Under the pieces are notes generated by a model, which had not been told where the DNA came from, did no database searches, and worked only from the letters and a program-made list of their open reading frames with translations. A DNA stretch of 64,000 nucleotides. Origin: Chitinispirillaceae bacterium (GTDB lineage: Bacteria > Fibrobacterota > Chitinivibrionia > Chitinivibrionales > Chitinispirillaceae). The translations under genes and the position numbers were made by a program. The stretch is taken from positions 1 through 64,000 of the forward strand of contig JAFGIN010000115.1 of assembly GCA_016929595.1 (NCBI GenBank), in the 5' to 3' direction. Positions 12,130 to 60,078 of the stretch are shown here, piece by piece (positions within the stretch are counted from its first letter, which is position 1; the number at the start of each line of letters is the position of its first letter).

Positions 12130-13749
12130 ATGGAAAAGGATAAATCTTCCATTCATTCGACAAACGTCTCCCTGGGAGTCATGTCTGAAGTGAGAAGAGA
12201 AACAGCTGCTTCGAAAGCACAACCCGCAATTCTCTTAATTTCTGGCGACTTTGGATTCCACTCGGATTCAGCATTGAAAATCAGCGCATCACAATGGAAC
12301 GATTTTTTTGGTGCAAACAAATTTGAACTCACCTGCTCAGTTGAACATAATCTTCCGGAATACATCAAACCCTTTTTCCTTGAGTATCCGGTAGAATCGA
12401 TAAATGATTTTTCGATTGATAATATAATCGAAAAAACTCCGCATCTTTCTCCAATTAAAACAGCACTCACTGTCACCGAACAACTCAGATTATCAAGAAT
12501 CGACAAATCTGAAGCCTACAGCCGCCTCGAGGCTCTTCAGGTACCGGAATCTTTGAAAAACAAGATTCTCATTAGTCTGAAACTCAGCCCCAACCGCGAC
12601 ACACCTTCAAGTAACCCGCACCAGATCGACTCGATTCTTTCCATGATAGACATTCAGGAGGAACCTGCAGCACCTCAAACCAGAACTGATAAATTTATCG
12701 CCACAGTTACCTCAAAGGACACATCAAACCCTGATTACGAGAGCGTCAAAACATTTCTTGCAGAGATTATGAAAAAAACCGCTGATGCAATAAGAAAAAC
12801 AGTGCGATTCACAGAAATTGCACGATCATGGCACTCCCTTAAAAATATTGTTAAGATCGCAGGGAGAAATGAGATCGTCGATATCTATTGTGCATCATCA
12901 CCCCGGGAAGAGGCTGTAGAATTACTCTCTTCAGTGCTTGGTGCCATGCCGGACGACCTGACTCCCGACCTCCTTTTATGGAATTATGACTATACCTTGA
13001 GCACCGCTTCCATGCAGGAACTTGAACAGGTGTCAATAATTGCTGAGAGATATAAAACAGTATTATGTACATCAATATGTAATTCTGAAGAGATTAACCG
13101 TGCGCTCTATTCAACTCAACCTGTCCGGATTGTAATGGAACACGATCAAATGATCCCTTATAATCGTTTTCGCAACAACACCGCATCCAGATCATGCATT
13201 CTCTGTTCAGCTCCTGAATATTCAGAATTGAACGCCAGCGAATTCAACCTTGCCAGCGGTGCGTGGATTATCACCGCCCAGTGGATGATATCTCTTGTGG
13301 AATCTGGTAATCCATTTCAGTGGCCCCTAAGAATTCAATCTATTACCGGTTTTGGTGCAACATCAAAAGTCGATGATTCCCGGATTGAGGAAGTTGCACA
13401 GTACGGAATAACTATCACAGAAAATTGCGAGTATCTTCATCGTGTCAGTCCGGTTTCAGCAATTGACATTTCGGAGGAATCCCCTTACCGAAGCGCCGGA
13501 TTTAATATTTTAGTAAACAAAACGGCTAGACTGGCTGCTACCCGGGTATCATCAAGAGAGATCACAGGTGAAAATGCCGCTTCAGTTTTGCATGATTTTC
13601 TTGTTACAAATCTCAAACCATATCATATTTTATCCAGTGATACAGCTTTGAGCGTCGACGTTTCAAACAATGTTGCTACCATTGAGCTTAATTCGGATTG
13701 TACAATTGACGGGTTTGGGATCGGGTTCCAATTTTCGATAAACATGTAA
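12130..13749 (+). CDS. Contractile-sheath-like protein, TssB and TssC related regions in one chain
   Basis: A 539-residue protein without a signal peptide. Residues ~1-130 follow the TssB (VipA) layout: AILLISGDFGF, then a conserved W-F stretch, a strand, and LEYPVESINDFSIDNIIEKTPHL, which mirrors TssB's L-x-F-x-S-x-x-DF-x-P-x-x-I-x-x-x-P-x-L. Residues ~220-539 follow TssC (VipB): WHSLKNIVKIAGRNEIVDIYC, DLLLWNYDYTLSTASMQELEQ, then the sheath core around NPFQWPLRIQSITGFGATSK and a C-terminal beta segment. TssB and TssC assemble the contractile tube of type VI secretion systems. No other T6SS gene is seen. It heads a five-gene run. Recognition is by pattern, not by a computed alignment. A divergent sheath-fold protein with another job is possible. 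Confidence 0.5.
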   Translation: MEKDKSSIHSTNVSLGVMSEVRRETAASKAQPAILLISGDFGFHSDSALKISASQWNDFFGANKFELTCSVEHNLPEYIKPFFLEYPVESINDFSIDNIIEKTPHLSPIKTALTVTEQLRLSRIDKSEAYSRLEALQVPESLKNKILISLKLSPNRDTPSSNPHQIDSILSMIDIQEEPAAPQTRTDKFIATVTSKDTSNPDYESVKTFLAEIMKKTADAIRKTVRFTEIARSWHSLKNIVKIAGRNEIVDIYCASSPREEAVELLSSVLGAMPDDLTPDLLLWNYDYTLSTASMQELEQVSIIAERYKTVLCTSICNSEEINRALYSTQPVRIVMEHDQMIPYNRFRNNTASRSCILCSAPEYSELNASEFNLASGAWIITAQWMISLVESGNPFQWPLRIQSITGFGATSKVDDSRIEEVAQYGITITENCEYLHRVSPVSAIDISEESPYRSAGFNILVNKTARLAATRVSSREITGENAASVLHDFLVTNLKPYHILSSDTALSVDVSNNVATIELNSDCTIDGFGIGFQFSINM

Positions 13750-13799
13750 GCAAATAGAAATTCTCTGTCATCACACTCATTAACAAGCGATTTTCAGAT

Positions 13800-14891
13800 A
13801 TGTTCAAATTTTCGAGTGATTCGGCACGGAAAAACAACAGATTCAAGAGTAAAAGCCTGATGAGGTTCACGGTTCCATCAGGTTTTCTGCTTGTAGTACT
13901 GCTATCAGCATTCATTTCCATTGCTCAATCATTATCCGGCACTGATGATTTCATTGATCACACGGTCAAAAAAGGTGAAACAATAAGTCTACTGTGCATT
14001 CAATATTACGGATATTATTCACAGTCACTTGGAAAGGCTCTGACCAGAGACAATCCTTCGTTGAAAAATATTGACATAATATCCATTGGTCAAAAGATTC
14101 TGTTCAAGAAACCTATAGAAAATGTTTCATCACCGGAGCAGTCAAACGCAGCAGATTCCACTACAACCGGAATGATTCCGGAGAATGATACAGTATTTAT
14201 AAAGCAGATCGACCTTAGCCAGGGAGTTGTTACGTACCTTGAAGGAACGTCATTCATCAAAAGGTCGCCTAACAACAGATCCGTTCGATTGGTTGTAAAC
14301 ACCATTGTGAACCCTGGTGACCGAATCGAAACAGGATCTGATGGCAGAGTCGAGATTCTCATAAACAGGGAATCGGTTGTCAGAATGAAAGAAAGCAGTA
14401 TTCTGGAGTTTGACTCATTAAGAAACATTGCTGAAAAAAAAGGTAAAACGCGTTTCAATTTTTCTCTTGGATCTGTCTGGACAAAAGTTAAAAAGTTCAA
14501 GGATTCCATTTCCCGTTTTGAGCTTGAACTTCCGACAGTCATTGCAGGCGTACACGGCACAGTGTATCAGACAAGCGTCAACAAAGACCGTTCCTCTGAA
14601 GTAAAAGTATTTGAAGGAGAGGTTGCAGTCAAACGCTTTCAACCTCCGTTACAGGTACATTCCGGTAATCTAAAGAGTGGGGAGATTGCAGGACCTCGTG
14701 AAGTGGCTGGTCCCAGGGAGGTTTCTCTGGAAAAATGGACCAGAATAGTCAAGAGCATGCAAATAATCCATATTGATGAAAATGGTATTCCGGACAGTAC
14801 ATCGGAAATAAAAGAGGTACCCCGGGACAGCTGGACATTATGGAACGAGGAACGGGACCGCAAAATTGCAGAAATCTTTTCGGAGTTATAA
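13800..14891 (+). CDS. LysM-FecR domain envelope protein
   Basis: A 363-residue protein; the start could also be ATG 13860 (MRFTVPSG). A signal/anchor helix (~26-42) is followed by a LysM module (~52-102: DHTVKKGETISLLCIQYYG ... ISIGQKILF), expected to bind peptidoglycan. A FecR-type beta domain follows (~135-290: VVTYLEGTSFIKRS ... VNPGDRIETGSDGRVEIL ... VIAGVHGTVYQTSV). FecR-type domains sit in the periplasm and pass envelope signals or organise surfaces. The stop is one base before the start of the CHASE2-kinase gene, so the two are coupled. Confidence 0.85.
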   Translation: MFKFSSDSARKNNRFKSKSLMRFTVPSGFLLVVLLSAFISIAQSLSGTDDFIDHTVKKGETISLLCIQYYGYYSQSLGKALTRDNPSLKNIDIISIGQKILFKKPIENVSSPEQSNAADSTTTGMIPENDTVFIKQIDLSQGVVTYLEGTSFIKRSPNNRSVRLVVNTIVNPGDRIETGSDGRVEILINRESVVRMKESSILEFDSLRNIAEKKGKTRFNFSLGSVWTKVKKFKDSISRFELELPTVIAGVHGTVYQTSVNKDRSSEVKVFEGEVAVKRFQPPLQVHSGNLKSGEIAGPREVAGPREVSLEKWTRIVKSMQIIHIDENGIPDSTSEIKEVPRDSWTLWNEERDRKIAEIFSEL

Positions 14892-14892
14892 A

Positions 14893-17265
14893 ATGAAAAA
14901 ATTTCTGATTCTCTGCGGAGCCACACTTATTCTATCAGTTATCTATTTTCTTAATCCATTGCGGTTCATCGACAACCTTTTCTATGATCTCAACTTTACA
15001 TTTCAATCCAAATCTTCTGTTGATTCGGTGGTTATTGTCGGTATCGATCGTCAGAGTATCAAAGTCCGGGGAGCATGGCCATGGCGGCGCTCGACAACAG
15101 CGCAGCTTATCAGGCAGATTGCATCTGCCCGACCAAAGGTGATTGCACTTGACTTTCAATTTCCCCGAAGGGATGATGCCGGAGAAAGTGACAGCCTCTC
15201 AAAGGTATTGTCTTCCCTGAACAATGTTGTTCTTCCTTTCAGTGTTGACGGGATCAGTACGGGCACTGCACCAGATGCAAACATCTCCCTCTCCCCTGTT
15301 CTCATGCAGCACATCATTCATCAACTGACTAACAAAAACCATCTGGAACAGATCCTTTTTTACAATGCATCGGGAATAGACCTTCCGGACTCGCTCTTTT
15401 TCAAGAGCACGAAATACAGCGGCTTTCTCAATATGTCGACAAGTAATTCCAGCCAGAAGCTCCGTGAAGCGATCCACGTTATCAAAGCCGGCGACTTTTA
15501 CCTTCCATCATTTGCAGTTGCTGCTGCTGCCGCTTTTTATGGAATCCCGATGGAGAAGATTGGACTTGACGGAATGGGTAGTGTCATCATAGGAGAGAAG
15601 CAGATACCGCTCAGTTCCTATGCGGCTTCACTTTTACTCAATTTCAGAAGTGAAAAGTATCCGATACCACACTACAGCGCATCCGAAATTATCGATGGTA
15701 CATTTGACATAAGTATTTTTCAGAATAAGGCTGTTTTTATAGGGGTAACCGATCCCCTGGCTGCAGCAGACTTTTTTACAACACCGGTGCAATCACAGTA
15801 TCCCGGTGTTGCAGTCTGGGCAACGGCAGTTCTGGATATAATTCACGGTACATGGATAAAAGCCGATGCACTGTTGCCCGCAATACTCCATTATCTGCTG
15901 GTCTTTCTGATTTTTCCCGGGCTTGCACTGTTCTTTCCACCAAAACACCAGCGGCTTGCTCTGGTTACCGGTATTTTTCTTATGATTTCAGGGGTTATTG
16001 GAAGCATTGTTCTTTTCAGAATTGCACATTATTTCGTAAGCCCTGCACCACCAGTCTATTCATGGGTGTGTTTACTTATCTGGCTTGCAGCAGTACGTGT
16101 TAATCCCACGCTTGCAGGAACACCACAACTGGAATTTGACCCTCCGGTAAATGCTTCAGCCGATGTACTTCCACCTCCACCACCCGAATCTCAAATAGTA
16201 TTTAAAGCGCTCCAATGCGATACAATGGATCATATTCTCCGTAAATCAAATCTTCCATTTGCAAAAATGTCCCAAAGCGACTCCGGTACATCGCTGATGC
16301 GGACCGTAGATGAAAGCTCTACTGATCTTTTATCAAAATTTCCTGATTCCGGAGATCTCACAACACTTCTTGAGTGTGGTGGCGGACAGATCATCGGGTT
16401 GCTCGGTTCCGGTGGCATGGCGGATGTCTATCTTATGTGGCACCCCCGACTTGAATCGTATCGGGCTGTAAAAGTGATGAAACCTTACATCTCAGAGAAC
16501 TTCCTCACCCGGTTTGAAACAGAGATAAGAATTTTTTCAAAACTTGATCATCCCAACATTGTTCGCTGTTTTGGTGCAGGTGACTGGCACTCGCTTCCAT
16601 ACCTTGAAATGGAATTCGTCAATGGTGCATCATTCGAAAACATTCTTCAGATCTGTAACTTCATTACTGTCAATCAGGCGATAGCAGTCGGAGTCCTTGT
16701 CTGCAAGGCACTGGAATATGCGCACAGCAGGACTATGCATATTTATGGCAAATCTACAGAGGGAATCATTCATAGAGACCTCAAACCAGCTAATATCATG
16801 ATGACAAAAAGTGGCCGGATAAAGCTGGCCGATTTTGGTATAGCTCGTCCTCAGGAGAACTCTTTTCATAGTGCCGAAGCAGAAAATGTTGCAGGTACCC
16901 TGCCTTATATCGCTCCGGAAGTTTTTGACAGAAATGAATATATGTCGAGAACCGATACCTACGCTCTGGGAGCAACTCTTTACGAATTGATCAGCGGTGA
17001 AAGAGTGTTTCCACAGACTACCGTTACCGAAATCATAAATGCAAAAATAAACGGAAAGTACAAACCGCTCTCATCATCGGTTAAAATACCACTTGAAGTT
17101 GAAGCAATTATCGATAAATCATTGAACGTTGAGCCATCCGGAAGGTATCAGTCTGCAAAGGAATTACGAACCGTGCTCGAAAAGGCATTTTTCAGTACAG
17201 GCGGTAGTGACGGTTTCGGACATCTCAGCGCACTTATAAAACGTATCTGGCCATCTCAACAGTAA
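14893..17265 (+). CDS. CHASE2 sensor-Ser/Thr protein kinase
   Basis: The start chosen is ATG 14893 (MKKFLILCG), nine bases after GGAG; a longer frame starts at 14866 inside the previous gene. 790 residues. An N-terminal helix, an extracytoplasmic CHASE2 domain (~25-310, VVIVGIDRQSIKVRGAWPWRR ... FIGVTDPLAAADFF), and three membrane helices (~325-415) are followed by a Pro-rich linker. The eukaryotic-type kinase domain is at ~500-765. The kinase is intact: LGSGGMADVY, catalytic Lys in YRAVKVMK, HRDLKPANI near residue 625, DFGIARP, and TLPYIAPEVF. It should phosphorylate Ser/Thr inside the cell in response to a periplasmic cue. The downstream FHA protein is the obvious candidate phosphothreonine reader. 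Confidence 0.9.
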   Translation: MKKFLILCGATLILSVIYFLNPLRFIDNLFYDLNFTFQSKSSVDSVVIVGIDRQSIKVRGAWPWRRSTTAQLIRQIASARPKVIALDFQFPRRDDAGESDSLSKVLSSLNNVVLPFSVDGISTGTAPDANISLSPVLMQHIIHQLTNKNHLEQILFYNASGIDLPDSLFFKSTKYSGFLNMSTSNSSQKLREAIHVIKAGDFYLPSFAVAAAAAFYGIPMEKIGLDGMGSVIIGEKQIPLSSYAASLLLNFRSEKYPIPHYSASEIIDGTFDISIFQNKAVFIGVTDPLAAADFFTTPVQSQYPGVAVWATAVLDIIHGTWIKADALLPAILHYLLVFLIFPGLALFFPPKHQRLALVTGIFLMISGVIGSIVLFRIAHYFVSPAPPVYSWVCLLIWLAAVRVNPTLAGTPQLEFDPPVNASADVLPPPPPESQIVFKALQCDTMDHILRKSNLPFAKMSQSDSGTSLMRTVDESSTDLLSKFPDSGDLTTLLECGGGQIIGLLGSGGMADVYLMWHPRLESYRAVKVMKPYISENFLTRFETEIRIFSKLDHPNIVRCFGAGDWHSLPYLEMEFVNGASFENILQICNFITVNQAIAVGVLVCKALEYAHSRTMHIYGKSTEGIIHRDLKPANIMMTKSGRIKLADFGIARPQENSFHSAEAENVAGTLPYIAPEVFDRNEYMSRTDTYALGATLYELISGERVFPQTTVTEIINAKINGKYKPLSSSVKIPLEVEAIIDKSLNVEPSGRYQSAKELRTVLEKAFFSTGGSDGFGHLSALIKRIWPSQQ

Positions 17266-17281
17266 ATTATATGAGGAACAA

Positions 17282-18922
17282 ATGAGTTACTATTATCTTG
17301 AGGTAATCAGGGGTACACAGACAGGAAAACGCTTTCTGCTCACCGATGGAGCGATAAGTATCGGACGAAACCCTCAAAATACCATTGTGCTGGATAATGA
17401 GAAATGTGTATCCGGACATCATTTGATAATCTACAAGTCACCAGAACGCATGTATCTTCAGGACCTTCAGAGCACCAATGGATCATATGTTAACGAACAT
17501 CAGGCAACAGAAATAGAACTCTCACCGGAGGACCAGATTGGTTTCGGAAAGACGGGGCCACGTCTTAAGGTCATCTGCTCCTCAGTTGAACTCCCGCTTG
17601 ATAACACCGGATTTGAAAACGCTCAACAGAAAACAGATGAAAAAGGTACATCGGCCTCCCTGCCATTGATGTCTGAACATGCTTCTACCTACGAAGAAAA
17701 TCAGAATACGATATTCAAAGCTAAAAATGGGCTGCATCCATCAGGAGATGGTCTCAATCCGTCAAAAACGATGGAATTTGAACAAAAAATCCTGAATAAA
17801 AATATCTGTTCCGAAGAGATGCAGGATTTGATGAACAATGACGAGCGGATGGAGAAAATTCTTGCAAGAGGTAATCTTGGCTCGACACAAACCAGTATGC
17901 TGCGAACGGTCCATAAAGCACACAAATCGATGCGTCGGCAATGGTATTATGTAGTAATCTCAATCCTTACAGTCAGTCTTTGTGTTATCGCCTTTTTTGG
18001 AATCCGTGCAATTCAGTACAAACAGATCATTTCCAAAGCAAAAATACTCAAAGAGGATATAGAGGAATATGACAAAAAAATCGCCTCTGCAAAAAGTAAA
18101 CCGACTAAAGATAAAAAGGAGCTGGAGCGGCTGATAAAAGAGCTTGAGGAAAAGCAGAAATCGCTTTCGACAATAAAAAACCAGATTGACGTCGCTGATT
18201 TTGGAAAATTTTACGAAGATCCTCTGGAGCAGCGGATTGATGAAGTACTGGTTAGATTTGGAGAAACAGATTATCAAATCCCCAAAGAGATGAAAGAACG
18301 GGTACAACACCACATAAACATATATTCGGGGAAAATGAAAAACACTATTACCCGTTACTTTCAAAGGAAAGAGAAATACTTCCCCTTCATTCAGAAGGTT
18401 TTCAGAGAAAAGAACATTCCGCTCGATCTTGCATATGTCTCGATGCTTGAAAGCGGATTTAACCCTATGGCTCTGAGCCATGCTGGAGCAAGGGGACTCT
18501 GGCAGTTCATGCCGCACACAGGACGACGGTTTGGTATGATTGTCAATGATAAAATTGACGAGCGAACAAACCCTGAAAAAGCAACTTACGCAGCCGCAGA
18601 GTATTTCAAGGAACTTATCGGAATGTTTGGTGGAAAAAGCGCTGTGATGCTTTGTATGGCTGCATACAATGCCGGCGAGGGCCGCATCATGGGCGCACTG
18701 CGAAAGATTGAGGATCCCATGAGAAACAGGGATTTCTGGTACATTTATAGAATGGGATATCTCGCGGAGGAAACCAATGAATACATTCCCAGAGTTATCT
18801 CGCTTATTATTCTTTCTGAGTACCCCGATGAGTATGGTTTCGGCAGTAGTGCAACGAAAGCTGCAGAGCAGCAGCTCGAAGAGGCCAGTGATTTTATCGA
18901 AGTTGATTATAAAGTTGAATGA
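17282..18922 (+). CDS. FHA domain-membrane-coiled coil-lytic transglycosylase
   Basis: A 546-residue protein of unusual make-up. Residues 1-95 are an FHA phosphothreonine-binding domain (ISIGRNPQNTIVLDN ... VSGHHLII ... LQDLQSTNGSYVNEH, with the binding R, S-x-x-H and N-G). A linker and one membrane helix (~222-243) follow, then a charged coiled coil (~248-300) and an SLT lytic transglycosylase domain (~365-500). The SLT domain has the catalytic Glu near 389 (AYVSMLESGFNPMALSHAGA), GLWQFMPHTGRRFG, and AAYNAGEGRI. Topology: FHA inside, peptidoglycan-cleaving domain in the periplasm. AGGAAC precedes the start, 16 bases after the kinase gene. Phosphorylation inside could thus gate wall cleavage outside (inference). 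Confidence 0.9.
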   Translation: MSYYYLEVIRGTQTGKRFLLTDGAISIGRNPQNTIVLDNEKCVSGHHLIIYKSPERMYLQDLQSTNGSYVNEHQATEIELSPEDQIGFGKTGPRLKVICSSVELPLDNTGFENAQQKTDEKGTSASLPLMSEHASTYEENQNTIFKAKNGLHPSGDGLNPSKTMEFEQKILNKNICSEEMQDLMNNDERMEKILARGNLGSTQTSMLRTVHKAHKSMRRQWYYVVISILTVSLCVIAFFGIRAIQYKQIISKAKILKEDIEEYDKKIASAKSKPTKDKKELERLIKELEEKQKSLSTIKNQIDVADFGKFYEDPLEQRIDEVLVRFGETDYQIPKEMKERVQHHINIYSGKMKNTITRYFQRKEKYFPFIQKVFREKNIPLDLAYVSMLESGFNPMALSHAGARGLWQFMPHTGRRFGMIVNDKIDERTNPEKATYAAAEYFKELIGMFGGKSAVMLCMAAYNAGEGRIMGALRKIEDPMRNRDFWYIYRMGYLAEETNEYIPRVISLIILSEYPDEYGFGSSATKAAEQQLEEASDFIEVDYKVE

Positions 18923-19933
18923 TTGACTGTTACCGTTTCAGAAAGGTGTCTTTTGCTTACGGGGTGTTACACATATCTGTCAGAAAATGACTGGAAAGAA
19001 AAAATATTTGCCTTCGATTCAATTGCACGATGTTGCACCTTATGCCCAAGAGAGTGCAGGATCGACCGGTTGAATGGCGAAAAAGGGTTTTGCGAAGCCC
19101 CTTCAACAATGATCATTTCGAGTATCTTTGCTCACCATGGTGAAGAACCACCTGTTTCCGGTAGTAAAGGATCGGGAACGGTATTTTTTTCATATTGCAC
19201 ACTTAAATGCTGTTTTTGTCAGAATTATCAGATTTCACATGAGTATGAAGGTGTGCGGTACACAGAGCAGGAACTCGCAGAGGCACTGCTGAGACTTCAG
19301 AATGAAGGTTGTCATAATATCAATCTCGTAACCGCAACGCATTTTCTTCCCTGGGTTTTAAAGTCGTTGAAAATTGCTGCCGAAAAGGGGCTTGAGATAC
19401 CAATCGTATACAATTGCGGTGGTTATGAACGTGTTGAAATAATAAAGCTTCTTGATGGAGTTGTTGACATATACCTGCCGGATATGAAATATGGTACCAG
19501 TCAGGCAGCCGCTCAGTTTTCACACGCAGCTGATTATGTTGAATGTAACCGCAATGCCATACGTGAGATGTTCCGTCAGACGGGCCCGCTCCGGATCAAC
19601 AAAGAAGGACTGGCAAAACGCGGATTATGCATCCGTCATCTTATACTTCCGGGGAATGTTCAAGGGAGTTCTTCAATTGTGGCATTTTTGAAAGAACATT
19701 TTGATCCTGAAGACATTACGATAAGTTTAATGGCTCAGTACAGCCCGCTTTACAAAGCAATGGAAACAGATTCAATCAACCGTCGAATAACGGAAGATGA
19801 ATACGAAGTCACTAAAAATGAATTCTCAGTTGCAGGATTCGATGGATTTTTCCAGGAATTTGAAAAAATGAACGAGAACTTTATCATCGATTTTAAAACA
19901 AGAAAGAGCGAACGGCTAATCGAGGAAGAGTAA
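18923..19933 (+). CDS. Radical SAM protein, PflA-like
   Basis: A 336-residue member of the radical SAM family often named putative pyruvate formate-lyase activating enzyme. An N-terminal cysteine cluster CTLCPRECRIDR...GFC precedes the radical SAM motif CTLKCCFCQN (C-x3-C-x2-C) near residue 92, then NINLVTATHF, YNCGGYE and DIYLPDMKYG. The substrate is unknown. The frame opens with TTG directly after the FHA-SLT stop. A second TTG at 18953 has AAAGGTG just upstream and may be the true start (326 residues). Last gene of the operon-like run. Confidence 0.8.
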   Translation: MTVTVSERCLLLTGCYTYLSENDWKEKIFAFDSIARCCTLCPRECRIDRLNGEKGFCEAPSTMIISSIFAHHGEEPPVSGSKGSGTVFFSYCTLKCCFCQNYQISHEYEGVRYTEQELAEALLRLQNEGCHNINLVTATHFLPWVLKSLKIAAEKGLEIPIVYNCGGYERVEIIKLLDGVVDIYLPDMKYGTSQAAAQFSHAADYVECNRNAIREMFRQTGPLRINKEGLAKRGLCIRHLILPGNVQGSSSIVAFLKEHFDPEDITISLMAQYSPLYKAMETDSINRRITEDEYEVTKNEFSVAGFDGFFQEFEKMNENFIIDFKTRKSERLIEEE

Positions 19934-24612: not shown

Positions 24613-26259
24613 ATGATTAGAAAGCATTCAGGCTTTTTAGCCGCAGCGATCTGTTCGATTCTCTGTTTCACTACTTTAAAAACGTATGCAATGTCAGAAG
24701 GGTATGTTTTAACAGGAGCCTACGGGGGTACGTCAACAATGCTTCTTGGTTCACAGGGGAACGTCGAGTTCAAATGGGATCACAGTACCCTCGAGAACCC
24801 TAAAAATGGGTATTCATGTTATCTTCTGAAAAATGGTAACCTGCTGCGATCAGCTTCAGTTCCTGATGGATCGGTAATTCAATCAATGGCACCGATACAG
24901 GGAATTATTCAGGAGATAGATCGTGATGGAAATATTGTCTGGAGCTATAAGCTGGCAGATAATAATGAAGGTATGCTTCATCATGACATGAAAATAATGC
25001 CTAACGGAAATATAATAGGTGTAGTTTTTGTTCCACTTACCAAAACAAAGATGATTGAAAAAGGCATTGATACCGTGTTATTAAAAGGTATGACAGGAAC
25101 AAAGTTTATTCTTTCTGAGAAAATTATTGAAATTGATCCAAAGGCAGAAGGTGGTCCAAAGATTATCTGGGAGTGGTGTATTCATGACCATGTCATCCCG
25201 GATGCTCAGGCAGCAGATCATCCCGAACTTATCAGTGGATCTATTGTAAATGCCCCGTTTTATACAAACCAGTGGGTTCATCTGAATGGAATAGACTACA
25301 ATGCAGAACTCGATATGATTCTTTTCTCCTCCCGGGTTTTCAGTGAATGTTTTATCATCGATCATGGAACAACAACTCAGGAAGCAGCCGGCCATACAGG
25401 TGGAGCAAGAGGTAAAGGTGGCGACATTCTGTACCGCTGGGGAAATCCGGCAAATTATAAGGCAACCGGTGCAACAAAAATTACTGTTCTTCATTGCGTG
25501 AACTGGATTCCAAATGGCTATCCAGGTGCAGGCAATATTATCTTCTTCCATAATAATACTGAATCGCAACAAACAAGCCATGGCTCAGCAAGAACATGCT
25601 CACAAGTAATTGAAATCAAGCCTCCGATGGATGCTCAGGGTAAATTTGAAAAAACAGCAGCTCAGCCATACGCTCCGACAACACCAACCTGGTTGTTTGC
25701 TCCAACCGATACCTTTTTCTCATCGTTTGCAATGAGCAGTGCGTTTCGTATGCCCAATGGAAATACCCTTGCACATGTTGCTTATCCTCCTTCTACGAAC
25801 AGCTCCCCCTGGAGTCTTGGTGGCAGCAGTATGATTTGTGAAATTGACAAAAACAAAAACTTTGTCTGGAAGTATACACTGAAAATGGAAGAAGCTACCA
25901 CCAACCCTGGAATGGGAATGATGCAGCAATCTTTTAACCCGGCTAAAATTATGTATTATAATAAGGATTATGAGGGGGTCAAAAAACTTTTAAACAATAC
26001 ATCAATTCAAGATCAGAAAAAGAATAGATCTTCAATGAATCCTGTTTTGACTCAATCCTCAGGATTAATACACATATCCGGTATTGATGGAGCAAAAGTA
26101 GATATTATCAATATGCAGGGAAAGAAAATCAGGTCTGTTAAAGTAACTTCAAATTCTTTAGAACTCAGTTTGCATGGATATTCTGCTGGGCATTACTATG
26201 CCAGAATAGTTATGAATAATAGAACAGAGATGATTTCAACTTTTAATGTGATCAAATAA
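24613..26259 (+). CDS. Secreted arylsulfotransferase-family protein with T9SS-type tail
   Basis: A 548-residue protein. Signal peptide ~1-26. The body is a beta-propeller-like arylsulfotransferase (ASST, PF05935-type) domain. It has HHDMKIMPNGNIIGVVFVPL, IIEIDPKAEGGPKIIWEW, VHLNGIDYNAELDMILFSSR, and FRMPNGNTLAHVAY. ASST enzymes transfer sulfate between phenols. Residues ~475-548 form a C-terminal beta domain (GLIHISGIDGAKVDIINMQG ... YYARIVM) of the T9SS sorting type. First of three neighbouring genes for exported proteins with such tails. The activity is inferred from family only. Confidence 0.75.
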   Translation: MIRKHSGFLAAAICSILCFTTLKTYAMSEGYVLTGAYGGTSTMLLGSQGNVEFKWDHSTLENPKNGYSCYLLKNGNLLRSASVPDGSVIQSMAPIQGIIQEIDRDGNIVWSYKLADNNEGMLHHDMKIMPNGNIIGVVFVPLTKTKMIEKGIDTVLLKGMTGTKFILSEKIIEIDPKAEGGPKIIWEWCIHDHVIPDAQAADHPELISGSIVNAPFYTNQWVHLNGIDYNAELDMILFSSRVFSECFIIDHGTTTQEAAGHTGGARGKGGDILYRWGNPANYKATGATKITVLHCVNWIPNGYPGAGNIIFFHNNTESQQTSHGSARTCSQVIEIKPPMDAQGKFEKTAAQPYAPTTPTWLFAPTDTFFSSFAMSSAFRMPNGNTLAHVAYPPSTNSSPWSLGGSSMICEIDKNKNFVWKYTLKMEEATTNPGMGMMQQSFNPAKIMYYNKDYEGVKKLLNNTSIQDQKKNRSSMNPVLTQSSGLIHISGIDGAKVDIINMQGKKIRSVKVTSNSLELSLHGYSAGHYYARIVMNNRTEMISTFNVIK

Positions 26260-26495
26260 GTTCCGAATTAAAGAATCTGTTTGATTCCAATTTTACAAAG
26301 GTTTTAAATGTTTTTTTTGCAGATTACGTACATTTACTATTTTTTAAAGAAGGATAGTATTGTTCGGCTTTAATTACTAACGTTAAAACCAGGTATTTTA
26401 TTATTTCATTTTGCTGTTGCAAAACGCATCAGAAAATCTAAAACAACGTGAATTTCAGTAACTTTCTAATATCATCAGCAGCTCGGGGGGAGTAC

Positions 26496-27980
26496 ATGTA
26501 TCACAAACTGATAATTCCTGCACTTTTTTTATTTATCTCCATACCATGTGCACAAACAATTGATCTGAAGGGAACAGTAAAAAAAGAGAGCGGCGATCCG
26601 ATTTCCAATGCACGGGTATCATTGAAAAATCACAGTTCACTAGTCAGTATTACAAATTCTTCTGGAGAATTTTCACTTTCGGGAACAAAATTATCACAAG
26701 TCTCTACAGATTCTCTTGTTGTAATAACTCAAGGGTACAGAACAGTTCTGGAAGAAGTTGACAATTTTGAAAAGGCTGATTACGCTGTCATACAGAAAGC
26801 ATCAAACCCCTGGATTCCTGATGGACCATTGGAACGCATGAATGGAATGGTAAAAATCAAGGCCAAAGGGCACGATTTTGAAATGGGCCAGCCAAGTGAC
26901 ACCATCCGTGGCTTGTTTCTTGGAGAAACAACAACTCCTAATGAACAACCGGTGCACACGGTAAATTTTACTTACGATTTCTGGATGGATACGACCGAAG
27001 TTCGTCAGAGTAAATACGATTCGCTGATGAAGTTAGTCTATGGAGACAGTTATATCAGACCGACCTGGAATGCAACGAATGGAATGGGACCAGAATTCGC
27101 TGCATACGCGATTGAATGGGGAAGCGCAGCACTGTTCTGCAACGCCCGAAGCAAAGCAGAAGGTTTGCCTGATACTGCTTATTCCTACACAAAAGTAATT
27201 GGAAAGCTTGGGGATATCTGTACACTCCAGAACGTTTCTGTAAAGCCTCATGCAAATGCCTACCGTCTTCCAACTGAAGCTGAATGGGAGTATTCCTGTA
27301 AAGGTGGTACCTTTACCGATTTTTATTGGGGTAAAAATTACAAACCATATGGATCATCATCTGCTGACAATGCTGAGATTGGCCAGTATGCGATATTCAG
27401 TTACAATTCATCAAGCTTGCCAAAAGACAAAAAAACTGATACGGCTTACTACGGAGTAAACGAAGTTGCAAGAAAAAAACCTAATAATTATGGCCTCTAC
27501 GATATGGTTGGTAATGTATCGGAATGGTGTGAAGACTGGGACAATTACTACTCCTGGGGAGAAGCTACTGATCCAGTCAGTGCGACTACTTCATTACTAA
27601 GAATACGAAAGGGCGGTAATTGGGGAAATGTAGCATCATATCTGCGAGCGGCAGAGCGAACATTCAATACACCCGATTATGAGTTTCTCTTTTGTGGTTT
27701 CAGATGCGTCAGTTCAGGCATACAAACCGGTATCAAAAAATTTAACAGGCAACATTCGCAAAAACATCCATCAATAAATTTTTCTTCTGGTCTTCTGAAA
27801 TTTTCAAACGTTTCAGGTTCAAAAATCGGCATATATACTTTAACTGGAAAAGAAGTGTATTCAAGCAGACCGACTCAAAACAGTGTACTTTTTTCATCCG
27901 GTAGCCTTCCAGCCGGATCATATATTGTAAAAATTCAGTCTCATGCTATTACAAATGCGATGATAACTGTCATTCCCTGA
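26496..27980 (+). CDS. Secreted SUMF1/FGE-fold protein with T9SS-type tail
   Basis: The start chosen is ATG 26496 (MYHKLIIPALF), just after GGGGGAG; a GTG at 26448 is possible. 494 residues. Signal peptide, then a carboxypeptidase-regulatory-like beta domain (~20-90), the formylglycine-generating-enzyme fold (~105-405) and a C-terminal sorting domain (~425-494). The FGE fold shows FWMDTTEVRQSKYD, YRLPTEAEWEYSCKGG, LYDMVGNVSEWCEDWD, RKGGNWGN, and FCGFRCV. The Cys pair that does catalysis in true FGE is missing: the segment reads SYLRAAERTFNTP. It is therefore probably a binding or structural relative, not a sulfatase activator. Confidence 0.8.
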   Translation: MYHKLIIPALFLFISIPCAQTIDLKGTVKKESGDPISNARVSLKNHSSLVSITNSSGEFSLSGTKLSQVSTDSLVVITQGYRTVLEEVDNFEKADYAVIQKASNPWIPDGPLERMNGMVKIKAKGHDFEMGQPSDTIRGLFLGETTTPNEQPVHTVNFTYDFWMDTTEVRQSKYDSLMKLVYGDSYIRPTWNATNGMGPEFAAYAIEWGSAALFCNARSKAEGLPDTAYSYTKVIGKLGDICTLQNVSVKPHANAYRLPTEAEWEYSCKGGTFTDFYWGKNYKPYGSSSADNAEIGQYAIFSYNSSSLPKDKKTDTAYYGVNEVARKKPNNYGLYDMVGNVSEWCEDWDNYYSWGEATDPVSATTSLLRIRKGGNWGNVASYLRAAERTFNTPDYEFLFCGFRCVSSGIQTGIKKFNRQHSQKHPSINFSSGLLKFSNVSGSKIGIYTLTGKEVYSSRPTQNSVLFSSGSLPAGSYIVKIQSHAITNAMITVIP

Positions 27981-28026
27981 ATTTCAATTTTCAGGTAAAG
28001 AATTAAATAATTGAATCGGTTATTTA

Positions 28027-28056
28027 CTCATGAACCGTAATTGAAATAATCATGAG
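28027..28056. promoter_or_regulatory. Inverted repeat upstream of CotH-like gene
   Basis: CTCATGA and TCATGAG form a perfect seven-base inverted repeat with a 16-base spacer, 20-50 bases before the CotH-like start. It could be an operator; no known regulator motif is recognised. Confidence 0.25.
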
Positions 28057-28075
28057 CATATATAAACTATAAAAT

Positions 28076-29659
28076 ATGGGACAACCTATGTTTAAATCAA
28101 ACAAAATTGCTTTCTTTCTCATAATTGCCGCCGGATACAGTTTCTGCCAGGTGCAGGATTCTTCACAACTAATTTTTAACGATACCATTGTTAATCGTTA
28201 TCGTATCAATTTTTACATTCCCAACTGGCGCGACAGTCTTATTTATTGGAAAAGTAATGGTGAAGAATATATTCCGGCAAAATTTACATGGTATAGTCCT
28301 TCGGGGGACAGCATCGTACTTGATAGTATCGGTGTGCGATACAAAGGCAATTCATCTTATGCTGTAGGATCAGAAAAAAAGCCTTTCAAATTCTCTTTTG
28401 ATAAATATCGTAAGAAACAGCGATTTTTTTCAATTGAGAAACTTAACTTCAGTAATATCATAGAAGACCCTTCGATGATGAGGGAAAAAATTGCGTACGA
28501 CATCCTGAAAAAATATATGCCATCTCCGAGGTCTGCGTTCGCCGTTTTGACAATAGAAGACAGCCTCGTTAATTGTCTGTATACCCAGGTGGAACAGGTT
28601 GACAAAATATTTCTTACACGTCATTACACAAACGATAAAGACAATCTCTATAAGGCCGCCGATCAGGGTGCATCACTGGATTACCTGTCAGCAAACAAAG
28701 ATGACTACAAGGAGTACTACGAATTAAAAACGAATGAAAAGAAAGATGACTGGACTGGTCTTATCAACCTGCTCGAAAAGCTTAAAAATACTCCTGATGC
28801 TGATTTTGTCAACGTCGTCGGCGGCATACTTGATCTTGATAATTGTATCCGTTATCTCGCATTTAATATGGTCAATGGGAATTTTGACAGTTACACCGGC
28901 TCCGGAAGAAACTTTTATATCTATGAAGATAAAACATACGGGAAATTCAGATGGATACCATGGGATCTTAACCTCTCATTTGGAGCATACACCTATTCCT
29001 GGCAAAGCGAAATAACAACTCTCAATCCATTCACCCCGAACAATCTTGATCAGCGTTTATTAGCGATGAGAATTCTTGGAATCGATTCGTTAAAAAAAGT
29101 GTACGTACAGTATATGAGAAATATGATCGAAGGCCCGTTGAGTGCGGATTCGGTCGCCGTTCTCGGACACAAATACGCGTCCGTCATTGGTCCGCATGTT
29201 CAGGCCGACACTAAGAAATTTTATACCTATGAACAGTTTCAGCGCAATATTGACAGTAATGTCGTTATCCAGGCCGGAACTAAAAAGATAATCCTGCTTG
29301 GACTAAAATGGTATACTGCCGAAAGAAATAAAAATGTACTTACTCACATCGAAAACTTGTCACCTGTTATAGATAAATCCAGAAACTGTCGCATTAACGG
29401 GTCCAGCATTACTATTCCAGGACGTATTTCAGGTAGAAATCTCTCTATCAATTACACTCTTGAATCAAATGTTTCTGCGGCATCGATAACCATGTTTAAT
29501 GCAAAAGGAGAAAAACTGCATAAACTGAATGAAGGCCCGAAAGAACGAGGTGCTCATACTGCAAACCTCAATATTCATTCAATGCCTTCAGGATACTATC
29601 TTCTCGTTCTCGATGCAGAAAATATATCACTCTCTAACCGTGTGTTAATTTTACAATAG
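28076..29659 (+). CDS. Secreted CotH kinase-family protein with T9SS-type tail
   Basis: A 527-residue protein (523 if ATG 28088 is used). Signal peptide ~5-27. The CotH domain spans ~30-400, with VRYKGNSSYAVGSEKKPFKF, REKIAYDILKKYMPSPRSAF, YTQVEQVDKIFL and RWIPWDLNLSFG. CotH family members are atypical secreted protein kinases, and in anaerobes the domain is also found on surface and polysaccharide-degradation proteins. Residues ~445-527 form a beta sorting tail (LESNVSAASITMFNAKGEKL ... SGYYLLVLD). Last gene before a strong bidirectional terminator. Confidence 0.8.
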   Translation: MGQPMFKSNKIAFFLIIAAGYSFCQVQDSSQLIFNDTIVNRYRINFYIPNWRDSLIYWKSNGEEYIPAKFTWYSPSGDSIVLDSIGVRYKGNSSYAVGSEKKPFKFSFDKYRKKQRFFSIEKLNFSNIIEDPSMMREKIAYDILKKYMPSPRSAFAVLTIEDSLVNCLYTQVEQVDKIFLTRHYTNDKDNLYKAADQGASLDYLSANKDDYKEYYELKTNEKKDDWTGLINLLEKLKNTPDADFVNVVGGILDLDNCIRYLAFNMVNGNFDSYTGSGRNFYIYEDKTYGKFRWIPWDLNLSFGAYTYSWQSEITTLNPFTPNNLDQRLLAMRILGIDSLKKVYVQYMRNMIEGPLSADSVAVLGHKYASVIGPHVQADTKKFYTYEQFQRNIDSNVVIQAGTKKIILLGLKWYTAERNKNVLTHIENLSPVIDKSRNCRINGSSITIPGRISGRNLSINYTLESNVSAASITMFNAKGEKLHKLNEGPKERGAHTANLNIHSMPSGYYLLVLDAENISLSNRVLILQ

Positions 29660-33336: not shown

Positions 33337-34158
33337 TTGGATCATTATTTCAGGGAAATAAAAAACAATAAGCCTCTTTCTCGTGATGAAGAATCGATGC
33401 TGATGGCACGAATTCGTAATAATGAACCGGAAGCACGCAATATATTAATAAAAGCAAATCTCAGGTTTGTAGTCGGTGTAAGCCGTAACTATCAGCATCA
33501 GGGCTTGCCATTGTGTGATTTAATTAATGAGGGAAATCTTGGACTCATCAGGGCATCCCTGCACTTTGATGAAACGAAGAATTTTAAATTCATTTCTTAT
33601 GCAGTCTGGTGGATACGACAATCAATTTTGACTGCAATTTCGGAACAGTCACGAATTGTCAGGTTGCCGATAAATCGAACTGGTGATCTTTTCAAGGTTA
33701 ATGTTGTTTCTTGTAAACTAGAGCAGCGATTGCAGCGAACACCTATGGTCTGCGAAATTGCACAGGAAATGGGTATGGAAGAGAGAATGGTTAACAATAC
33801 CATTAACGTTAGCAATACCCATCTTTCCCTGGATGCTCCTGCCGGGAATTCTAGTTCATCTGATTTTGTTGATCTGATCGAAGATAAAAATCTTGAAAGC
33901 CCCGATAAGTGGGTTAGTGAAAATTCTTTTAGAAAAGTTATAGAAAAAGCCCTTGAAACGCTCCCATCCCGTGAAAAGGAGATAATAAAACTTTATTTTG
34001 GGATCGGCAGTAACAATCCATCAACACTTGACAGTATTGCCCAACGTTTTAATTTGACACGTGAACGCATTCGACAAATCAAGAGTACTGCAATCTTACG
34101 TCTCAAAAAAAATACCACTTTGGAATATCTAAAAAATAATGGATATGAAAATTGTTAA
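33337..34158 (+). CDS. RpoD/RpoS-like sigma-70 family factor
   Basis: 273 residues from TTG 33337. Region 1.2 (LDHYFREIKNNKPLSRDEE), region 2 (NLRFVVGVSRNYQHQGL, DLINEGNLGLIRA, FISYAVWWIRQSI), region 3 and region 4 (TLPSREKEIIKLYFGIG ... LTRERIRQIKSTAILRLKK) are complete, and region 1.1 is missing. This is a group-2, alternative primary-like sigma factor. The frame stays open upstream to 33271. An ATT at 33292, preceded by AAGGAAG, would give 288 residues starting (M)KTKNLSNSS. Either start is possible. No anti-sigma gene adjoins. Confidence 0.88.
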   Translation: MDHYFREIKNNKPLSRDEESMLMARIRNNEPEARNILIKANLRFVVGVSRNYQHQGLPLCDLINEGNLGLIRASLHFDETKNFKFISYAVWWIRQSILTAISEQSRIVRLPINRTGDLFKVNVVSCKLEQRLQRTPMVCEIAQEMGMEERMVNNTINVSNTHLSLDAPAGNSSSSDFVDLIEDKNLESPDKWVSENSFRKVIEKALETLPSREKEIIKLYFGIGSNNPSTLDSIAQRFNLTRERIRQIKSTAILRLKKNTTLEYLKNNGYENC

Positions 34159-56374: not shown

Positions 56375-56998
56375 TTAAAGAAAAGGTATAATTCTCTCTA
56401 TTACTTCATTCTGAACCTCTTCGATCGACCTGCTCGCATCGATTATAGAGACTCTCTGGGGGTCCCTTCTTCCCAGTTCAAGGTATCCATTGTGAATTCG
56501 ATGAAAGAACTCATCCCCTGCCGATTCGAGTCGATCCTTTAACTTATTCATTTTTCTCATTCTGTTGAATGCCTCTTCAACAGGAATATCAAATACAAAC
56601 GTTACATCCGGCACATTTGCACCCATCGCGAACTCATTCAATTCAATCAAACGCTCCATCGGAAAACCTCTGCCAAATCCCTGATAGGCAAATGTCGCCA
56701 ATTGAAATCTGTCACAAAGAACTATATCTCCATTTTCAAGAGCCGGAACAATTCTCTGGCGAACATGTTGCGCCCTTGCCGCAAGATAGAGAAGAATCTC
56801 ACATTCATCAGTCATTTCGGAGTGTTTTGGATCGATAAGGATCTCCCGAATCCGCTCTGAAATCACAGTTCCACCCGGTTCCCTTGTTACATCAACTGTG
56901 TACCCCATCCTCGATAGTTTTTCTCTCAGCAACGCGACCTGTGTGCTTTTTCCACACCCATCAATTCCCTCAAATGCAATAAAAGAACCCCGTTTCAT
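56375..56998 (-). CDS. tmk: Thymidylate kinase
   Basis: The start chosen is ATG 56998 ([14 protein letters not shown]), preceded by GGAG; it overlaps the secA stop. 207 residues. P-loop [52 protein letters not shown]. Makes dTDP from dTMP. Confidence 0.96.
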
Positions 56999-59900
56999 AA
57001 TGCTCCATGACACTTTTTATATTTTTTCCCGCTCCCGCATGGACAAGGGTCGTTTCGTCCGATCTGTTCCGCAGTATTCACGACCGGCATCTTCTGCCCA
57101 CCCTCAGTACGATTTGTTGTAACCCGCATTGGCTGCGAACGAACTGCGGAAGGTCTGAGATTCTGTGCCGGTGCCGATGTGGAGAAAAGATTATCATCAC
57201 TTGACTTATGAGGCGGATCGATCCTCTGCGGCGCAGGCTGCTCTACAACACGTTCCAATCTGAAAATGTAATTGGAAACTTCTTTTGCAATGGCATCCCT
57301 TAACTCCTCAAAGAGCTTCAATCCCTCTTTCTGATATTCAAAAAGCGGATTTTTCTGTCCAAAAGCCCTGTACTGAACACCACTTTTAAGATGATCCATT
57401 TCATAAAGATGGTCTTTCCACAGATTATCGATAACCATGAGGAATACCTGACGTTCAAACTGCCTCATGATCGCTTCGCTAAACCTTTTCTCTTTCTCCT
57501 GATACCGTTCTTTGATTTTTTTCCATACATCATCAAACAGCGTATCGTTTGACATTTCACCTTCTGGCATTTTATAAATAATACCAAATGTGGTCTGTAA
57601 TTCGGTTATTAAGGTTTGAGTATCCCAGTTTTCAGAGTACTTCCCGCTTTCTGTAACTCTCAAAATCATATCTTCAAGACATGCTGCGATCTGATCCAGT
57701 ATTTCATCACGAAGATCTTCACCGCGGAGAATTCTCTGCCGTAAACCATATATCTCTTTCCTCTGGAAATTCATCACATCATCATACTGTTTGAGATGTT
57801 TACGAATTTCAAAATTTCGTCCCTCAACACGTTTCTGTGCATTTCCAATTGCCCCTGAAACGAGAGGATGAGAGATAACCTCCCCATCTTCTGCTCCGAG
57901 ACGATCCATGATCGCCGCAATTCTTTCTGACCCGAATATACGCATCAGGTCATCATCAAGAGAAAGGTAAAACTTACTTGATCCAGGATCACCCTGACGA
58001 CCGGCACGACCTCTGAGCTGATTATCGATACGACGGCTCTCATGCCTTTCTGTGCCAATGATATGCAGACCGCCGAGTTCCTTTACTTTTTGATTTTCCT
58101 CTTTTGTCTGCTGAAACAGCTTGCTGAACTTCACCCGTTTTTCTTCAAGAGTCAGCGACTCTACATCGATGTCATCTTTAAGCAGTTCCTGATTTGCAAG
58201 AATCTCAAAATTTCCACCAAGAACGATATCTGTTCCACGACCAGCCATATTTGTTGCAATAGTCACAGCACCAATACGCCCCGCCTGTGCCACAATCGTC
58301 GCTTCTTTTGCGTGCTGCTTTGCATTTAAAACCTCGTGCTCGACTCCAGCCCTCTGAAGCTGCTTGCTTATGAGCTCTGACTTTTCAATTGATGTTGTTC
58401 CAACAAGACACGGACGCCCCAACTTATGCATTTCCTGAATATCTTTTACAACCGCATTGTACTTTTCACGTTGCGTTTTATAGATTTCGTCATGATGGTC
58501 CTGACGAACAAGCGGACGGTTTGTCGGTATCGTGATAACATCGAGCTTGTATATCTCATGAAACTCCCCAGCTTCTGTGATTGCAGTACCGGTCATACCG
58601 GCAACTTTTGCATACATTTTGAAAAAGTTCTGGAAAGTAATTGTCGCCAGTGTCTGGTTTTCACCCGCAACTTTAACCCCCTCTTTCGCTTCAAGCGCCT
58701 GATGAAGCCCCTCACTGTAGCGCCTTCCATGAAGAATACGGCCGGTAAACTCGTCCACGATGAGAATCTGCCCGTCCTGAACAACATAATCGACATCCCG
58801 TTCGAAAAGCGAAAATGCACGCACGAGCTGGCTCACACTATGAATGCGCTCGGTCCGATCAGCATACGCCCGGTGAACTTCTTCACGTTTCTGAGCCTTT
58901 TCTTCTTCACTCAAAGAACTATTGTTATCAATCGCCCCGATGGTCTCCGCAAGATCGGGAACAACAAAGAAATCGGGATCATTGCCACTTATAAGAACAC
59001 GCCCTTTTTCAGCGAGTTCTGCACTGTGCCCGGACTCATCGATTGTATAAAATAGTTCTTCATTAATTTCATGCAGTTTGCGATCCCGGAGATAATCGGT
59101 CTCTACGGTTTTCATATACTTTGCAACCCCGGGTTCCTTAAGCATCTTAACCAGCCGCTCATTCTTAGGCGCCCCTTTCTGTGCAATAAGCACTTTCAGA
59201 CCGCACTCATACTCTTTACCCGGTTGCTTAAGAAGCTCCTCCGCTTCGGCGATTATTTTATTAACAAAAGTATTCTGAACCATTACCAGCTTTGAAACCC
59301 GCGGTTTAAGCTCCTCATACTCCTGGTTTGAACGTGTCACCTGACCGGAGATAATAAGCGGCGTCCTTGCCTCATCAACAAGGATATTGTCAACTTCGTC
59401 AACGACAGCAAAGTTTAACTCCCGCTGAACACAATGTTCCGGTGATGAAGCCATGTTATCACGAAGATAATCAAACCCGAATTCATTATTTGTACCAAAG
59501 GTAATATCACAGAAATACGCATCCCTGCGGTCCGGGCTGTGCGGCTCTGTTGTGTCAAGACACCCAACCGTCAATCCAAGAAACCTGAAAATCTTCCCCA
59601 TCCACTCGCTGTCACGACGGGCAAGGTAATCATTGACAGTTATAACATGAACACCTTTTCCGGACAAGGCATTAAGATAAGCTGCCATGGCTGCTACCTG
59701 CGTTTTACCTTCACCGGTTCTCATTTCAGAAATCTTTCCCTGATGCAAAGCAATTGCACCCATTACCTGCACGTCAAAGTGCGCCATGAACGGGATCTCT
59801 TTCTGCAAATACTGGTCAAATACCATCCGGCGCTCACCCAATACACGATGAGTAGCTTCCCGAACTACAGCAAACGCCTCAGGAAGAATGTCATCCAGAG

Positions 59901-60078
59901 TCTCACCAGCAGCAAGTCGTTTTCGAAATTCCATTGTTTTTGAGCGCAAACCGTCATCATCAAGAGCCCGGATTGTATCACCGCAGCTGTTGACAAGTTT
60001 AAGGATCGGCTGTAATTTTTTAACATCTCTATCCTGTTTGGAACCAAAGAATAATTTCAGTATGTCTAAAAAAATCAT
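56995..60078 (-). CDS. secA: Preprotein translocase ATPase SecA
   Basis: 1027 residues, longer than the ~840-900 of proteobacterial SecA and closer to FCB forms. Walker [81 protein letters not shown]. The C-terminal zinc motif is [17 protein letters not shown]. An insert of ~100 residues (around 265-360, [17 protein letters not shown]...) lies in the first nucleotide domain. Coupled to the FliL-like gene by ATGA. Confidence 0.98.

What the first reader, a model, noticed from the sequence alone, without database searches (positions are those of the whole stretch)
12130..19933. Operon linking sheath-like protein, LysM-FecR, receptor kinase, FHA-transglycosylase and radical SAM enzyme
Five same-strand genes with gaps of 50, 1, 16 and 0 bases. 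Together they offer peptidoglycan binding (LysM), envelope sensing (CHASE2, FecR), Thr phosphorylation, phospho-reading (FHA) and wall cutting (SLT). Kinase plus FHA control is known from post-translational regulation of type VI secretion (PpkA/Fha1). Here it would gate local wall opening for a sheath-like machine. This is inference from gene order and domains.
Basis: partly seen in the sequence, partly recalled or inferred. Interest (0 to 1): 0.72.

Follow-up and report, generated by a model that had tools for sequence, protein, structure and literature searches.

The report
Phospho-signalling operon serving a type VI injector
Five neighbouring genes in a little-studied Fibrobacterota bacterium appear to form a control and cell-wall-opening kit for the type VI injection machine, including a wall-cutting enzyme joined to a phosphate-reading domain and an unusual one-piece version of the machine's normally two-piece contractile sheath.

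Summary
The five genes are real. Their order is complete in four relatives (G001, G017, G025, G031), split by a contig end in G011, and partly lost in G008 and G003. The genome belongs to Fibrobacterota, near Chitinispirillaceae. Shown: TssB and TssC profiles and the predicted fold match its two halves. Its linker keeps a [VILA]DxI[LM]xM motif (15/15) that aligns with TssC's N-terminal ClpV-binding motif. All 15 fusion genomes carry canonical tssBC. The FHA-lytic transglycosylase occurs in 30/30 order members with tssBC and is absent from 8/10 without; the two exceptions still have ClpV. It lies beside tss genes in about eight genomes. In G032 the four-gene module stands divergently next to tssA-tssB-tssC-hcp. 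Inferred: envelope-sensed phosphorylation controls FHA-SLT wall opening for T6SS assembly. The fusion's job is unresolved (minor sheath subunit or ClpV-directed regulator); it lost most TssC invariants and is probably not bulk sheath. New variant of a known kind.

The parts
12130..13749 (+). Single-chain TssB-TssC fusion-like sheath-family protein (539 aa); TssB-like about residues 29-153, linker about 154-200, TssC-like about 205-539
   Evidence: dN/dS 0.22 in a close pair of relatives
12625..12654 (+). Linker motif QIDSILSMID (residues 166-175), equivalent to the TssC N-terminal ClpV-recognition motif
   Evidence: 15/15 fusions carry [VILA]DxI[LM]xM; hhalign register for the unlinked fusions; PMC4239648 for the LLDEII motif
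13800..14891 (+). LysM-FecR protein, one predicted N-terminal membrane segment or signal anchor, presumably periplasmic
   Evidence: adjacent to the CHASE2 kinase wherever the strong orthologue was mapped
14893..17265 (+). CHASE2 receptor Ser/Thr kinase (PknB-like), catalytic motifs intact
   Evidence: GSGGMADVY, RAVK, HRDLKPAN, DFG, APE
17282..18922 (+). FHA (cytoplasmic) - one predicted TM segment (about 220-238) - SLT lytic transglycosylase; FHA and SLT motifs intact
18923..19933 (+). Radical SAM enzyme (CxxxCxxC), accompanies FHA-SLT in several relatives

Best explanation
The locus is a T6SS accessory operon. SHOWN by sequence comparison: gene 1 is a diverged single-chain TssB-TssC protein with both sheath halves and a TssC-type N-terminal motif in its linker; genes 2-5 are a conserved module (LysM-FecR, CHASE2-Ser/Thr kinase, FHA-SLT lytic transglycosylase, radical SAM) whose FHA-SLT gene tracks T6SS and often sits in tss clusters. 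INFERRED: the periplasmic LysM-FecR protein docks on peptidoglycan and signals envelope state through CHASE2 to the cytoplasmic kinase. The kinase phosphorylates a threonine target (perhaps TssL, TssM, FHA-SLT or the fusion itself), as in the PpkA-Fha pathway. The FHA domain binds the phosphosite and brings the tethered periplasmic transglycosylase to the membrane-complex assembly site, where it cuts peptidoglycan, a role played elsewhere by MltE or TagX. The fusion most likely engages the canonical sheath or ClpV as a low-copy sheath-like subunit or regulator rather than forming its own sheath.
For: Profile A1 built from the fusion family hits canonical TssB (columns about 32-160) and TssC (about 190-395) genes across the phylum; hhalign E 2e-10 to TssC and 7.5e-9 to TssB. 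AF2 model pLDDT 80, pTM 0.79; best PDB match TssC E 8e-8, VIA Z 25.1 to TssC and Z 22.0 to a single-chain sheath over residues 30-529. All 15 fusion genomes carry canonical tssBC; Fisher p 0.006 within the order. FHA-SLT (over 300 bits) in 30/30 order genomes with tssBC and 2/10 without (Fisher p 6e-7); both exceptions carry ClpV. FHA-SLT within a few kb of tss genes in G003, G004, G006, G007, G012, G032, next to tssM in G033, and as a paralogue next to tssM in this genome. G032: rSAM, FHA-SLT, CHASE2-kinase, LysM-FecR divergent from tssA-B-C-hcp. LysM-FecR pairs with the CHASE2 kinase wherever mapped, and G003 lost LysM-FecR, its local FHA-SLT and the kinase's CHASE2 domain. Own genome has a bona fide ClpV with I6, L10 and S86 by alignment to 3zri, uncharged as in the class that reads LLDEII-type motifs (PMC4239648).
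Against: In this genome the operon is on a different contig from the mapped tss genes (C184 versus C84, C123 and C193). LysM-FecR plus a CHASE2-kinase fragment occurs in G026, where no T6SS marker was found (83% complete genome). The fusion is absent from module-bearing loci in G010, G016 and G028. No PP2C phosphatase or TagF is in the operon. No phosphosite or physical interaction can be shown from sequence. Fusion-ClpV co-occurrence (14/18 versus 1/14) is confounded by phylogeny: only 2-3 independent pairs, not significant. The other co-occurrence p-values also treat related genomes as independent.
Confidence: 0.7

Rival explanations
1. Genes 2-5 are a general envelope or wall-maintenance signalling operon; the sheath-like gene is a passenger and proximity to T6SS genes in some genomes is incidental.
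For: The fusion moves in and out of the locus; LysM-FecR/CHASE2-kinase in G026 without detected T6SS; in this genome the operon is unlinked to tss genes.
Against: FHA-SLT tracks tssBC 30/30 versus 2/10 in the order and lies beside tss genes in about eight genomes, in several different placements.
Confidence: 0.2
2. Within the T6SS reading: the fusion is a minor sheath subunit that copolymerises with canonical TssB/TssC, for instance in a terminal ring, as eCIS use several sheath paralogues.
For: Both halves fold as one sheath protomer; the operon-type fusions keep a TssB-like N-terminal strand (SIHSTNVSLG versus IPAARINLKL) and TssC-like C-terminal strands.
Against: Only 7-25% of invariant canonical TssC residues are kept per region in operon-type fusions, and the unlinked type lacks the N-terminal strand.
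Confidence: 0.3
3. Within the T6SS reading: the fusion is a ClpV-directed decoy or adaptor that tunes sheath recycling.
For: Invariant D, I and M of the linker motif in an otherwise variable linker; ClpV in 14 of 15 fusion genomes; compatible ClpV groove residues.
Against: G025 has a fusion but no ClpV over the cut-off; G028 and G013 have ClpV and no fusion found; not significant after correcting for phylogeny.
Confidence: 0.25
4. Gene 1 is a decaying remnant of an old tssBC locus without function.
For: Low identity (about 30%) within the family and loss of most TssC invariants.
Against: Open in all 15 genomes, dN/dS 0.22-0.24 in two pairs, invariant motif residues, operonic position kept in two families.
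Confidence: 0.05

Closest known systems
TssB/TssC (VipA/VipB) contractile sheath of T6SS
   Same: Fold, domain order, TssC-type N-terminal motif, sheath-type N- and C-terminal strands
   Different: One polypeptide, about 140 aa shorter than TssB plus TssC of this genome, most TssC invariants lost, not encoded with hcp or tssA, coexists with canonical tssBC
PpkA-Fha1 (TagQRST) threonine-phosphorylation pathway of T6SS
   Same: Membrane Ser/Thr kinase with periplasmic sensor part, next to an FHA protein, tied to T6SS loci
   Different: CHASE2 and LysM-FecR inputs instead of TagQRST; FHA fused to a transglycosylase; no PppA or TagF in the operon; TagH model TIGR03354 only 29 bits (cut-off 120)
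MltE / TagX, wall enzymes for T6SS assembly (EAEC, Acinetobacter)
   Same: Wall hydrolase proposed to serve T6SS membrane-complex insertion
   Different: MltE is a housekeeping enzyme recruited by TssM and TagX is an L,D-endopeptidase; here an SLT domain is membrane-tethered to an FHA reader
Single-chain sheaths of phages and eCIS (gp18, Pvc2/Afp2)
   Same: Whole sheath protomer in one chain
   Different: No Phage_sheath Pfam hit; closer to TssC by Foldseek and profile; this genome's real phage/eCIS-type sheath is on C40

Membership tests
T6SS sheath (TssB/TssC) | Sheath fold with TssB-like and TssC-like parts | tested here: met
T6SS sheath (TssB/TssC) | Scores over the VipA and VipB family cut-offs | tested here: not met
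   VipA 16.3 bits (cut-off 24), TIGR03358 15.7 bits (cut-off 97), no VipB hit
T6SS sheath (TssB/TssC) | Two separate subunits encoded with hcp or tssA | tested here: not met
   Single ORF; no tss gene recognised near the 15 fusion genes in the stretches fetched
T6SS sheath (TssB/TssC) | LLDEII-type ClpV-recognition motif before the TssC part | tested here: met
   15/15 fusions in the linker; register by hhalign in the unlinked type; binding itself untested
T6SS sheath (TssB/TssC) | Assembles into contractile tubes | not testable with these tools
   -
PpkA-Fha threonine-phosphorylation pathway | Membrane Hanks-type kinase with intact catalytic residues | tested here: met
PpkA-Fha threonine-phosphorylation pathway | FHA protein with intact phospho-binding motifs, genetically tied to T6SS | tested here: met
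PpkA-Fha threonine-phosphorylation pathway | PppA phosphatase, TagF or TagQRST partners in the operon | tested here: not met
   None of the five products matched these; rest of the genome not searched
PpkA-Fha threonine-phosphorylation pathway | Kinase phosphorylates an Fha or Tss protein | not testable with these tools
   -
T6SS-dedicated wall hydrolase (MltE/TagX role) | Catalytic wall-hydrolase domain on the periplasmic side | tested here: met
   SLT with ESGF, GLWQFM and AYNAGE, after one predicted TM segment; topology inferred
T6SS-dedicated wall hydrolase (MltE/TagX role) | Encoded with or strictly accompanying T6SS | tested here: met
   30/30 versus 2/10 in the order; beside tss genes in about eight genomes
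Phage/eCIS sheath | Phage_sheath_1 domain | tested here: not met
   No hit; in this genome PF04984 matches only C40

The most novel reading that the evidence does not exclude
A phosphorylation cascade that senses the wall directly controls both a dedicated FHA-tethered lytic transglycosylase and a single-chain TssB-TssC paralogue recognised by ClpV, so that wall opening and sheath nucleation or recycling are gated together.
Probability: 0.25. Interest if true: 0.82.

Novelty: new variant of a known kind. Interest (0 to 1): 0.62.

Why it matters
How a large T6SS membrane complex crosses peptidoglycan, and how its opening is timed, is only partly understood; a 2023 review (PMC10433429) notes that wall hydrolases are not commonly encoded in T6SS clusters. 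Here one polypeptide joins the phospho-reader to the wall cutter and tracks T6SS in an order of bacteria, which makes the link directly testable. A natural TssB-TssC single chain that coexists with the ordinary two-piece sheath is a ready tool for asking what sheath paralogues do outside the tube, and how ClpV recognises substrates.

Tried and rejected
(1) Gene 1 as a phage/eCIS sheath: no PF04984 match, no informative PHROG. (2) Separate contractile machine at this locus: no tube, baseplate or spike genes recognised near any of the eight operon-type loci. (3) Pseudogene: disfavoured by dN/dS and conservation. (4) search for related loci with the divergent sheath alignment failed for lack of conserved stretches; the FHA-SLT alignment was used instead and returned only Fibrobacterota. 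(5) Fusion-ClpV co-occurrence looked strong (14/18 versus 1/14; Fisher p 8e-5) but did not survive correction for phylogeny. (7) Promoter/terminator scan uninformative. (8) Literature searches found no report of a natural TssB-TssC fusion (hits were fluorescent-protein fusions). A T6SS in Chitinispirillum is mentioned once (PMC4814513). Only open-licence papers were searched. (9) The fusion was searched for only within the phylum, so its absence elsewhere is not shown.

Full report
OBSERVATION. The window is G000:C184:1-64000 of a 6.6 Mb genome.

GENE 1. Pfam and NCBIfam give only sub-threshold TssB hits. A profile from 11 relatives (A1) retrieved, in one search of 167 phylum genomes, four further fusions and canonical TssB genes over columns about 32-160 and canonical TssC genes over columns about 190-395. 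Using only the eight operon-type sequences, hhalign gives E 2e-10 to TssC and 7.5e-9 to TssB; the unlinked fusions give E 7e-40 to TssC. The AF2 model (pLDDT 80, pTM 0.79) matches TssC best (VIA Z 25.1 to 9n4v_A) and single-chain sheaths over residues 30-529 (Z 22.0 to 8kee_C). On a tree of TssC-like parts, operon-type and unlinked fusions are each one group, and canonical TssC lies on the other side of a supported branch; branches are long, so a single origin is consistent rather than proven. Each genome has one fusion: eight operon-type, seven unlinked.

LINKER MOTIF. Every fusion has [VILA]DxI[LM]xM between the two halves, inside a linker that is otherwise variable and disordered in the model. 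hhalign aligns this stretch of the unlinked fusions with the N terminus of canonical TssC, for example LDYIYEAMDL. In V. cholerae that helix carries LLDEIM, and P. aeruginosa HsiC2 has ILDSII, bound by ClpV when its groove lacks charged residues (PMC4239648). This genome has a bona fide ClpV (1171 bits, cut-off 885) whose groove positions 6, 10 and 86 are I, L and S by alignment to 3zri. ClpV binding of the fusion remains an inference.

DEGENERACY. Per region, operon-type fusions keep 7-25% of residues invariant in canonical TssC and the unlinked type 10-56%; the operon type keeps a TssB-like N-terminal strand that the unlinked type lacks. dN/dS is 0.22 and 0.24 in two pairs. The fusion is thus constrained, but under different rules from a bulk sheath subunit.

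GENES 2-5. Kinase, FHA, SLT and radical-SAM motifs are intact. FHA-SLT has one predicted TM segment, which would place FHA in the cytoplasm and SLT in the periplasm (inferred). LysM-FecR is adjacent to the CHASE2 kinase wherever its strong orthologue was mapped. In G003, LysM-FecR is gone, the kinase has lost CHASE2, and an FHA-SLT lies in a T6SS cluster instead; in G008 LysM-FecR and the kinase are absent from the operon.

LINK TO T6SS. Own genome: tssA-B-C-hcp on C84, tssF-tssG-clpV on C123, and a second system on C193 with tssM, L, K, A, B, C, hcp, E, F, G, vgrG. All 15 fusion carriers have canonical tssBC. FHA-SLT (over 300 bits; stand-alone SLT proteins score about 156 or less) is in 30 of 30 order genomes with tssBC and in 2 of 10 without; these two, G014 and G035, carry ClpV, in G014 next to tssM. 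Outside the order only some T6SS genomes have FHA-SLT, so it is not universal in the phylum. Gene maps place FHA-SLT beside tss genes in G003, G004, G006, G007, G012 and G032, next to tssM in G033, and as a paralogue next to tssM in this genome's C193 system. G032 has rSAM, FHA-SLT, CHASE2-kinase and LysM-FecR divergent from tssA-tssB-tssC-hcp. The iPGM-flanked locus exists without the fusion in G016, G028 and G030, so the fusion is the optional member.

INTERPRETATION. The pattern resembles PpkA-Fha control (reviewed in PMC10482370) combined with a wall-opening enzyme (MltE, TagX; PMC10433429, and PMC5061870), but with different sensors, FHA and transglycosylase in one chain, and a sheath paralogue at the head of the operon. 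It works like those systems; it is not filed as a member of any, because cut-offs or partner genes that define them were not met. Co-occurrence counts treat related genomes as independent and are therefore optimistic; for fusion versus ClpV the phylogenetic test had only 2-3 pairs.

Noticed in passing
window 33337-34158; L024:7068-7904; L065:5909-6745: Sigma-70-family factor in the window with a relative 0.5 kb upstream of tssA on own contig C84 and another upstream of tssA in G025: possible dedicated T6SS sigma factor.
   Followed up: partly
L025:11061-12566 (G000:C40): A true phage/eCIS-type sheath protein with Phage_sheath domains, so this genome holds two T6SS sheath sets, one phage/eCIS sheath and the single-chain paralogue.
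   Followed up: no
L063, L065, L079, L080 and other TssC N-termini: The acidic residue of the TssC N-terminal motif (LDYIY/LEYIY) is kept in eight ClpV-bearing genomes but replaced in several without ClpV (LQYIY, LKYIY, LGYIY); G013 is an exception.
   Followed up: partly
L082:5323-10144 (G000:C193): Two further protein-kinase-like genes next to tssM and a second FHA-SLT paralogue in this genome's other T6SS.
   Followed up: no
window 24613-29659: Arylsulfotransferase, FGE-sulfatase and CotH proteins with weak Por secretion (T9SS) sorting-domain hits.
   Followed up: no
window 56995-60078; L024:14075-16465: Two SecA-like proteins: one in the window, one about 1.5 kb downstream of the T6SS hcp gene on C84.
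   Followed up: no
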